This document shows positions 7,601-12,983 of a stretch of DNA of 64,000 nt, in pieces. The DNA comes from Pseudomonas entomophila. GTDB taxonomy: Bacteria; Pseudomonadota; Gammaproteobacteria; Pseudomonadales; Pseudomonadaceae. The stretch lies in the NCBI RefSeq assembly GCF_018417595.1, contig NZ_CP070982.1, positions 3,306,001 to 3,370,000 on the forward strand. The letters are read 5' to 3'. Every line of letters begins with the position of its first letter. The first letter of the stretch is position 1. The position numbers were made by a program, and so were the translations under genes. Below the pieces are notes generated by a model. It was not told the DNA's origin. It ran no database searches and worked only from the letters and a program-made list of their open reading frames with translations.

Positions 7601-10600
7601 CTCCTTGCTCATTGACCCACGCTTGCGGCCCTACGGCCGACGGCGCCGGGGTCATGTCCACCACGACCTGCCCGCCCGGCAGGTAGTCCCATTCGCAACT
7701 GGCCAGCAGCTTCGACCCATCCAGCCCTTGCAGACTGTATTGCGCGAGGGGCACGAAGTGCGTTGTGCCGTTTCTGCGCCACTCGTGCCGCCAGGCCCGT
7801 TGCACACCGTCCAGATAACTGCGGCTGATGTCCTTGTTCGCGTGGGTATGGGTTGCCAGCTTGCCGTCAGCCGAATATTCGGTGGAGGTCTGCTCATCGG
7901 GCTTCTGCTCATCGCCCCTGCTCAGGTACACGCCCTTGCTGTCTTTCTCGAGTGTGTAGCACGTCTGTTGAGTCACCCGTCCCATTGCATCGTACTGCCA
8001 GTGTACCTCCTTGCCTTGTTCAACCTGCTCCAGAAGGCGCCGAGCATGGCGCGAGCGCAGTTGCTTGCGCAGTTCCTGGGGACCTGCCTGGGTGGTGGTT
8101 TTGATAAGGACAATGATGCCGTCATAGTTGGGGTTGTCCATGCTTTCCTGGTGGTTGCTCAGTTTGAACACGCATTCGAGCGGGCCGGAAAAATCGTGAG
8201 TGATCTGGACATCTTGCTCCGACCACTTCCTGACCTTGCTGTCTGCGCCGCCCATACGGGTAGGCGCGGTAGCCTTGGTGCTGCGTTGACGCCACAGCAG
8301 CTTGGCAGAGGCGTCGGCCATGGCCCAGCCAGCACTGGCGTCGAGTTGGTTGCCCTTGATGTCGCCCTTGACCCCTTCGACCGTCAATACCTCGGCCAAC
8401 TCCAATAGCTGGCGACTACCTCGCGTCACTTCGCGGTAACCGAACAAGCGCAAGCCCTGGGGTTTACCGAAGGGGTCACACTGGTATTCCGCCATGACGG
8501 GCGCCGAGGCATGCCGGGGGATAGCCGGGCAGCTCAGGGCCGGCAAACTTTCAAGCCCTTTGATGCCCTTCAGTTGAGCGAGCTGGCCGGGCTCGGCCAG
8601 CGTGAACGGGTTGTCCCCCGCCATATTGTAGTAACAACGATACAGCGTGTGCTCACCGCCAACGTGCCTGTACAGCTCGTTGCCGTCCAAGTCCTCGACG
8701 TGCTTCGCCAACTCCACCGCGCGCCCCAGCGCATCACGCTCGGCAGGCGTGTAGCTGGCCAACAGACGCGTGATGCACGCGGCCAGTTTCGGGCGGTCGG
8801 CCTTGTGGGATTTATCGATGATCCACTCCAGCAGATCCACCTGGTGCGGCACCAGCGCTGCCCCCTCCTTCACATTGATCTCACCGCCTGTGGCGCCCGT
8901 TCCGAGGGCGTACAGCAGTTCAGCGAACTCATCGCCTGCGCCGGTGTAGCGGTAGGCCTTGGTCTCTCTGTATCGGTCCTTTTTCCGCTGGTTCTTGCGT
9001 GTGCAGAAGTTGAGCCAATGGCCTTGCGCCGAAGCCACCCCACGCAACAGTTCGAAACGGTTGATGCTACCGTTGTGCTTGACGTTGCCGTGAACCAGCA
9101 TGTGTTGCTGCCGGGCACTGTGCGGGCCGCTTTCGTACTCGACGCTGACTACGAGCTGCTTGGTATCCAGGAAACTTCCATCGTAGCAATAAGTCGCCAG
9201 CTGATTCTCTTGCCCATCGCCAGGCACCAGGGCGTGCAGTGCCACCCGTGGCAGGTCTCGGCGTGTTTCGCCCACCTGATACTTGACGCACTCGACCGAC
9301 CCGTCAAGCTCACGCAAACCGCACAGCACCCGATCCAGGCATGGGTCGTCGGCATAGTCACAGGTGACCTGTTGCAGTACGTGACGCTCAACGTTACCGC
9401 CAACACCCGCTCGCCGTTCGCTGCGCGCTATCGTGCGTAGCAGGTAGTCCTTGAGTTCCAGCTCGACCTCGTAACCCTCCGTCTTGCTGTGTGGCCAAAC
9501 CTGCATTTTCACCTGCGCAGTCTTCTCCCGCGGTGTGGTGTACTCAGCCTTGAACAGCGGCTCATTCCCACTCTTCACCTCCAACAACATGACCTGGCCC
9601 TCTTGGCGCAGCCATTCCAACGTCAGGGATTCGCCATCGCGCGACTCGATCGTCGACGGCACCAGCAGCACGAAGGGCCGCTGGTACTCGGCAATGAGCT
9701 TTTTCAGTTGGATGATGTTGTCATCAGCGTGCCACTTGGCAACGGCTTCGTCGTAATCCAGCTTCGTAGCCCAGGAATAAAGTCTGGGCATGACTATCGT
9801 GGCTACCCATTGCTGCCAGTTCTCCGGCACCGTAGGAAAGTCTGGCTTGGATTTATCCCTGATCGCGATCAACGCTTTCAGGACCTTCTCGTGGAGTTCC
9901 TTGTTCGGCTCCTCTTCGTCACCGTCCGCGGCTGCAGGTTTTTTCAGGACTTCTTGACGCCCGCTTGGCAGGTCGAGGGTGAACTCGCTGTAGTCCTGGT
10001 TGCTGCGCACCACGCAGGAGGCCAACTTGATCGCCTCGCCCTTGCCCAGCTGGGTCCATTGCGCGTCGGTGAACGTGAACTGGGCACCGTCGGCCAGCGT
10101 CAGCAACCGACTGCGCACTTCCACACTGGAAAAGCGCCAGGCCCAGCCATCCCCCAGCCCTGCTTCGTTGGCCCGCAGCGCCGAATAGTGCAGGGTCAGG
10201 TCGACCGCCGGCCCCTGGCATAGCAAGCCCTGCAGGCTGGCCACCGGGTAATGGCCGTGGAACAACCCGGTGCGCGGATCCACCCCGGCTTCGCCGTGGC
10301 CCGTGGTGTCGAACAGTTCGGAGCGGTGGGTGTAGCCGTAGTCCTCGCAGAGGAAGCTGATTTCATCGTTCTGCTTGAGCGATTCAGGCGGGGTGAAGCG
10401 GACAGGCTTGGGGGCGTGCCAGAACTGGTTGTATTGCAAGGCGCCGATATGCCCCACGGTCAGGGCGTCGTTGCCGCGCTCGGACTCGGGGCAGTCCAGG
10501 TAGAGGTCATACTCTTGGTTAGTCAGCGGGCCTTGCCAGGTGATGGTGTCGCCGGTGACCGATACGGGCCATACCGCAGGGGCCTCCTTTTGGACTTCTG

Positions 10601-12983: not shown

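What the first reader, a model, noticed from the sequence alone, without database searches (positions are those of the whole stretch)
10600..11290. Extreme alanine-rich insert with a pure GCC tract inside an RHS protein
About 225 residues are dominated by Ala with spaced Tyr/Asn/Lys/Asp, including 46-codon duplications and 19 perfect GCC triplets. I know of no such long Ala-rich helix between the N-terminal part and the RHS shell of a toxin. The tract can vary in length in frame, so strains could tune a rod-like spacer or surface feature.
Basis: partly seen in the sequence, partly recalled or inferred. Interest (0 to 1): 0.7.

Follow-up and report, generated by a model that had tools for sequence, protein, structure and literature searches.

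The report
Hypervariable alanine-rich insert in Rhs protein
A giant Rhs protein of a Pseudomonas carries an extremely alanine-rich segment at a spot that, in close relatives, holds quite different segments while the rest of the protein hardly changes, which suggests a variable part that evolution keeps replacing.

Summary
In a 2786-residue RHS protein (window 12983..4623, minus strand) residues 584-787 contain 119 Ala of 204. Of these, 116 of 119 are GCC codons, against 44-48% in the rest of the gene. The perfect run is 18 GCC, not 19, and there are codon-exact repeats at offsets of 46 and 49 codons. A (GCC)12 tract was found in 2 of 398 Pseudomonas genomes.

Comparison changes what it is. Of 59 homologues found, 19 carry an insert at this site (105-312 residues, poor in Pro and Gly), 38 have none, 1 is too truncated to judge, and 1 (Serratia) has its own Ala/Tyr-rich stretch. 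Three proteins named P. mosselii and one metagenomic pair are 96-100% identical in the flanking parts compared, yet their inserts are only 21-28% identical. For one complete pair the insert region is the only low-identity region. This is an internal hypervariable cassette, unlike the C-terminal variability described for Rhs and TcC. The Ala-rich form is one clade in which in-frame repeats expand. My best reading is a variable helical recognition or adaptor module; that function is inferred. The rod-spacer idea is only partly supported.

The parts
4623..12983 (-). RHS protein gene, 2786 aa
   Evidence: RHS_repeat PF05593 and GbpA_2 PF18416, TIGR03696 at 2391-2451
12567..12842 (-). GbpA_2-like domain 1 (residues 48-139)
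   Evidence: E 8e-6, 26.5 bits, just under the 26.6 cut-off when scanned alone
12291..12500 (-). GbpA_2-like domain 2 (residues 162-231)
   Evidence: 29.8 bits alone, cut-off 26.6
10572..11486 (-). whole insertion relative to 38 insert-less relatives (residues about 500-804, borders approximate, set by eye)
11235..11408 (-). first part of the insert (residues 526-583), alignable within the Ala-rich class
10623..11234 (-). Ala-rich core (residues 584-787): 119/204 Ala, 116/119 GCC
10929..11117 (-). offset-49 repeat: codons 623-636 vs 672-685, 13/14 codons identical
10869..11054 (-). offset-46 repeat: codons 644-659 vs 690-705, 16/16 codons identical
10656..10709 (-). perfect (GCC)18 tract, poly-Ala residues 759-776
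10593..10622 (-). conserved end of the insert (VKLVHAIAEV; AAxKLxxAI in the consensus of relatives)
5631..10355 (-). RHS shell, from about residue 877 to the core motif ending near 2451
   Evidence: start set by the conserved CEDYG...VDPRTGLFH block
4626..5639 (-). C-terminal part (residues 2449-2786), two hydrophobic stretches, no Pfam match up to E 1

Best explanation
The Ala-rich tract is one allele of an internal hypervariable cassette. A GbpA_2/RHS protein family of Pseudomonas gained an insertion, by composition mostly alpha-helical, just upstream of the RHS shell, once as far as the tree shows. Since then the cassette has diversified while the rest of the protein is kept: by replacement of the whole cassette (probably homologous recombination across the conserved flanks), and in the window's lineage by in-frame repeat duplication and slippage of GCC-rich DNA. 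Shown: site, groups of inserts, contrast with flanks, repeats. Inferred: helical fold, recombination as the exchange route, and the function, namely a surface-exposed recognition or adaptor module (target binding or coupling to a delivery partner) under diversifying selection.
For: 19 of 59 homologues have an insert at this site, 38 none, 1 not measurable, 1 with a different layout (one search scored only the 7976 candidates sharing most words). Mean pairwise identity in 18 aligned proteins is 0.54-0.95 per 50 residues outside the insert up to residue 2600 and 0.47-0.56 beyond, against 0.19-0.23 in 551-800. Of 210 pairs among 21 insert-bearing proteins, 32 have shells at least 84% identical; in 29 of these the inserts are 20-45% identical, in 3 they are 71-92%. 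Sharpest: P0010/P0013, P0010/P0014, P0013/P0014 and P0019/P0020, with N-terminal parts 98-100%, shells 96-99% and inserts 21-28% identical, 100 residues before and 90 after the insert left out. In P0010/P0014 identity is 97.5% over 2276 such positions, and every 50-aa window below 0.70 lies in 501-825; the C-terminal parts are 98.8% identical. A like insert occurs under two species names (P0014 P. mosselii, P0016 P. soli: insert 85%, N-terminal part 85%, shell 92%). Identity falls off over up to 80-100 residues on each side, as at recombination edges. On the shell tree insert-bearing proteins form one clade, the Ala-rich ones one sub-clade, and groups c and d are intermixed. dN/dS window vs G199: 0.30 and 0.29 in flanks, 1.17 in the insert, 0.73 in its better alignable first part. 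All 21 inserts measured have 2.6-8.9% Pro+Gly; in the 20 with a rest value the rest is 12-13%.
Against: No model or experiment shows a fold or a binding partner. Exchange is inferred from protein sequences; the DNA of the sharpest pairs was not fetched, and it is not known whether those proteins are alleles of one locus or copies at different places. hhalign between groups gives only local matches of 9-26 columns; the best is b vs b2 (70.9% over their last 26 columns), the others 22% or less, so common descent of the inserts is not shown. BLAST did not link P0004, P0005 or P0009 to any other insert; I placed them by the alignment or by eye. In the Ala-rich group whole replacement was not seen: P0003/G199 inserts are 71% identical with indels. 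dN/dS in low-complexity sequence is unreliable: the first part is 0.36 for window/quercus, close to the flanks, and the whole insert is 0.53 for window/mosselii, no higher than the C-terminal part there (0.52). P0019 and P0020 come from metagenomes, where chimeras are possible; P0013 is a truncated 1813-aa ORF.
Confidence: 0.5

Rival explanations
1. Tolerated low-constraint loop: a surface linker where slippage and insertions accumulate nearly neutrally; the Ala-rich form is drift driven by GCC-rich repeats, with no specific function.
For: 116/119 GCC codons and codon-exact repeats point to recent slippage; dN/dS near 1 in some pairs; 38 of 59 homologues do without any insert.
Against: The frame is kept in the inserts seen; both ends of the insert are conserved; low Pro/Gly in all 21 measured inserts; very different full-size inserts in proteins 97.5% identical elsewhere are not expected from slow drift.
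Confidence: 0.25
2. Rod-like helical spacer whose length is tuned by in-frame GCC and repeat changes.
For: 0 Pro and 1 Gly in 204 residues, high helix propensity; Tyr and non-Ala residues recur at 95 and 94 degrees (14/300 and 5/300 random placements as strong); length range 105-312 aa.
Against: Asp alone shows no such period (202/300). Relatives differ in sequence, not mainly in length: P0010/P0014 inserts are 267 and 281 aa but 21% identical. Among 93 proteins the Ala-rich form is confined to the window's group (5 of them) and one Serratia protein.
Confidence: 0.1
3. The insert acts on membranes itself, for instance as a translocation or pore helix region.
For: The poly-Ala/Val end scores as hydrophobic as a membrane helix (759-777, KD 1.93; maximum 2.19), and some other inserts reach 1.84-1.87 (P0005, P0006, G199); T6SS PAAR effectors are reported with N-terminal TMDs (PMC8765631, passages).
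Against: The ten inserts of groups c and d have no such stretch (maxima 0.64-1.63); all 21 inserts are net acidic, the window's -18.
Confidence: 0.1
4. Assembly or sequencing artefact.
For: Simple GCC tract; repeats collapse or expand easily in assemblies.
Against: One-contig genome, frame intact, and Ala-rich inserts with an alignable first part in five other proteins from other genomes or metagenomes.
Confidence: 0.03

Closest known systems
[quoted passage not shown] PMC2935791, search listing only)
   Same: RHS shell and core motif; one part of an otherwise conserved protein is hypervariable.
   Different: The variable part lies upstream of the shell; the C-terminal part is 98.8% identical in P0010/P0014.
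[quoted passage not shown]
   Same: Helical domain directly before an Rhs cage, proposed there as internal chaperone and VgrG tether.
   Different: Tse15's lies at the N-terminus and is reported in other Gram-negative Rhs effectors; here the segment is internal, after GbpA_2-like domains, hypervariable, and two inserts tried had no Rhs match in the PDB by sequence.
RhsA plug domain, Pseudomonas protegens (PMC8765631, passages)
   Same: Lies at the same end of the shell; the paper notes that plugs at this end differ more between Rhs families than the C-terminal ends do.
   Different: That is a cork between families with PAAR upstream; no PAAR domain was found here, and the variation here is between near-identical proteins.

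Membership tests
RHS-repeat proteins | RHS repeats and RHS-associated core domain | tested here: met
   PF05593 51.6 bits (cut-off 22); TIGR03696 44 bits (cut-off 32.5); profile A1 matches a solved Rhs protein and a teneurin-like protein in the shell
T6SS PAAR-Rhs effectors | N-terminal PAAR domain | tested here: not met
   No PAAR among Pfam matches up to 0.01 for the whole protein or up to 1 for N-terminal pieces
T6SS PAAR-Rhs effectors | VgrG partner available | tested here: inconclusive
   10 TIGR03361 match rows elsewhere in the genome, none within the window; nothing links them to this gene
Tc toxin B/C subunits | SpvB/TcdB N-terminal Pfam domains | tested here: not met
   one search lists only GbpA_2 and RHS_repeat at E <= 0.01
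Tc toxin B/C subunits | C-terminal hypervariable region | tested here: not met
   C-terminal part aligns to the window's at 0.39-0.76 identity in the 17 of 19 insert-bearing relatives with a core motif (2 without); 0.988 in P0010/P0014
Polymorphic toxins | immunity gene directly downstream | tested here: inconclusive
   In the list of non-overlapping ATG ORFs of 90 aa or more, the only one between the gene end and the + strand neighbour 2983-4092 lies on the + strand; smaller or overlapping ORFs not examined
Tse15-type clade domain | sequence relation to a solved helical clade domain | tested here: not met
   phmmer of the window insert and of one ordinary insert (P0010) against PDB chains at E <= 1: no Rhs match
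Tse15-type clade domain | helical bundle fold | not testable with these tools
   structure prediction switched off

The most novel reading that the evidence does not exclude
Rhs proteins have a second mode of diversification: an internal cassette site upstream of the shell, where very different helical modules are exchanged and decide what the protein binds or how it is delivered, while toxin end and cage stay fixed; triplet-repeat expansion can build a new allele there.
Probability: 0.4. Interest if true: 0.75.

Novelty: new variant of a known kind. Interest (0 to 1): 0.6.

Why it matters
Rhs and Tc proteins are known for swapping their C-terminal toxin. A family that keeps its C-terminus and changes an internal segment instead would point to recognition or delivery, not toxicity, as the contested property. 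The Ala-rich allele also offers a bacterial case of a long coding GCC expansion whose stability can be measured directly.

Tried and rejected
Rejected: a gene on the + strand (ORF 10251..11384, 377 aa, Gly-rich). Codons ending in C read as GNN in the opposite frame and cannot make stops, so the open antisense frame is expected. Rejected: ancestry from a known domain. Weak Pfam/NCBIfam/PDB matches (GMC_oxred_N 18.1 bits under the cut-off of 23, NADH-quinone oxidoreductase E 0.11) I take as composition effects.

Led nowhere: searching proteins with residues 575-800 alone gave none at E <= 0.01 among 7978 scored; the genome-contig scan gave 4 loci; no strain of the same species was found among what is held, so tract length could not be compared. 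Gene neighbours: in the 7 loci compared, the only matches to the window's flanking ORFs are one ABC-transporter ATPase-type protein (40% and 31%) in L004/L049 (L004 and L049 are the same region of one genome, L002 and L050 likewise). Ten paper searches: nine for Rhs or Ala-rich/variable inserts listed nothing that describes this insert, as far as titles and abstract starts show; one for bacterial polyalanine/GCC repeats listed mainly human work. Five papers were opened by passages only; PMC10672994 and PMC3482391 gave nothing on this insert.

Full report
What is there. The tract lies in one open frame of 2786 codons on the minus strand (window 12983..4623), with one match in a one-contig genome of 5.96 Mb. 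The protein has two GbpA_2-like domains near the N-terminus, RHS repeats and an RHS core motif. The Ala-rich core is residues 584-787. Of its 119 alanines, 116 are GCC, while the rest of the gene uses GCC for 44-48%. Third-position C is 88% against 40%. Perfect GCC repeats number 18, not 19. Repeats at offsets of 46 and 49 codons are codon-exact over 16/16 and 13/14 codons; 60 codon shuffles reached at most 6.0 against 14.4. In 398 Pseudomonas genomes (GCC)12 occurs in two, one of them this window; the other lies in broken sequence that I judge by eye to be transposase-like.

Relatives. A search with residues 430-1000 gave 59 proteins; only the 7976 candidates sharing most words were scored. 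At the site, 19 (P0002-P0020) carry an insert of 105-312 residues, 38 (P0022-P0059) have the flanks close together, P0021 starts too late to tell, and P0060 (Serratia quinivorans) has an Ala/Tyr-rich stretch with a run of 11 Asp before the shell. In a sample of 398 Pseudomonas genomes, 12 encode a match to residues 797-880 at E <= 1e-15; I identified an insert-bearing gene in 5 of these (G000, G146, G199, G328, G174, the last two by ORF length and contig), saw none in G104, G277 and G256, and did not settle the other 4. They align over the first 60 or so residues and the last ten, and differ in the middle. Of 93 proteins collected, the window has the highest Ala content in 100 residues (65); the next are 41, 41, 38, 37 and 37, all at this site, P0060 among them; then 34 (P0056, elsewhere in the protein) and 33 (P0007). 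In P. quercus 72 of 100 insert Ala codons are GCC, in G199 85 of 117 for a slightly wider stretch; in two ordinary inserts 16 of 32 and 13 of 43.

The main result. I sort the inserts into five groups (a, b, b2, c, d) by BLAST and, for P0004, P0005 and P0009, by alignment or eye. hhalign between groups gives only local matches of 9-26 columns; b and b2 may be related (70.9%), the others reach 22% at most. The rest of the protein is well conserved (0.54-0.95 per 50 residues outside the insert up to 2600, 0.47-0.56 at the C-terminus, 0.41 at 501-550, 0.19-0.23 in 551-800). Of 210 pairs of 21 insert-bearing proteins, 32 have shells at least 84% identical; inserts are 20-45% identical in 29 and 71-92% in 3. 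The sharpest are P0010/P0013, P0010/P0014 and P0013/P0014, three of the four proteins named P. mosselii, and the metagenomic pair P0019/P0020: N-terminal parts 98-100%, shells 96-99%, inserts 21-28%. These figures leave out 100 residues before and 90 after the insert, which are less conserved; with nearer borders P0013/P0014 is 97% and 95%. For P0010/P0014 every 50-residue window under 70% identity lies in 501-825 of 2735 residues, and 2276 other aligned positions are 97.5% identical; in P0019/P0020 the low windows span 426-900; P0006/P0007 has one more at 1551-1600 (0.68); P0010/P0013 has more because P0013 is truncated and its start differs. Conversely P0014 (P. mosselii) and P0016 (P. soli) have an 85% insert with N-terminal part 85%, shell 92% and C-terminal part 81%. 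On a FastTree tree of 55 shell segments (of 94 proteins at hand; shorter and more distant ones left out) insert-bearing proteins group together, the Ala-rich ones form one sub-group, and groups c and d, and b and b2, are mixed (midpoint root, support values not shown).

Selection. Pairwise dN/dS, given as N-terminal part, shell, C-terminal part, whole insert, first part of insert. Window/G199: 0.30, 0.29, 0.44, 1.17, 0.73. Window/quercus: 0.28, 0.29, 0.39, 0.98, 0.36. G199/quercus: 0.23, 0.24, 0.49, 0.80, 0.58. Window/mosselii, with different groups: 0.29, 0.31, 0.52, 0.53, 0.53. For P. mosselii/P. soli the first part is 0.86; no whole-insert value came out, and that run's shell figure is void because the right border was not found. 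The insert values depend on alignment of low-complexity sequence. I take this as relaxed or diversifying, not as proof of positive selection.

Shape and function. All 21 inserts measured are poor in Pro and Gly (2.6-8.9%); the rest of the protein is 12-13% in the 20 where it was computed. The window's core has 0 Pro and 1 Gly. Tyr, polar and non-Ala residues recur at 94-95 degrees (14, 8 and 5 of 300 random placements as strong), Asp does not (202 of 300). This suggests helices with one polar/aromatic face, but no model could be made. The known helical domain at this place of an Rhs protein is the Tse15 clade domain, proposed as internal chaperone and VgrG tether (PMC11461821, passages). Rhs and TcC proteins are described as varying at the C-terminus (PMC7861908, passages; PMC2935791, title and abstract start). 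The RhsA paper says that N-terminal plugs differ more between Rhs families than the C-terminal ends (PMC8765631, passages), so some variability at this end is known, but not between near-identical proteins as far as I saw. Here the C-terminus is kept and an internal part varies. I therefore favour a variable recognition or adaptor module; a tolerated loop is the strongest rival. The genome also has VgrG-type genes and three TcA-type proteins; nothing links them to this gene.

Limits. No same-species strains, no structure, no DNA for the sharpest pairs, and no proof that these are alleles of one locus. The exact GCC count rests on one assembly.

Noticed in passing
G227:C18:21944-21997 (locus L062): The only other (GCC)12+ tract among 398 Pseudomonas genomes; it sits in broken sequence that reads by eye like a transposase remnant, on a 31-kb contig downstream of an 1852-aa ORF.
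   Followed up: partly
P0060, residues about 573-672: Serratia quinivorans GbpA_2/RHS protein with an Ala/Tyr-rich stretch and a run of 11 Asp (634-644) before the RHS shell, apparently arisen separately.
   Followed up: partly
window 21012-36002 and 35519-61003, with 17765-19774: The first ORF has NRPS adenylation, condensation, carrier and two thioesterase matches, near a MacB-type exporter: looks like a lipopeptide cluster (that label is recalled). The 8494-aa ORF was not scanned.
   Followed up: partly
window 10251-11384 (+): 377-aa Gly-rich antisense ORF, open because most sense codons there end in C; the antisense frame is also open for long stretches in L037 and L038.
   Followed up: yes
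G000:C1:735947, 5405088, 3738508: Three TcA-type (TcA_TcB_BD) matches elsewhere in the genome.
   Followed up: no
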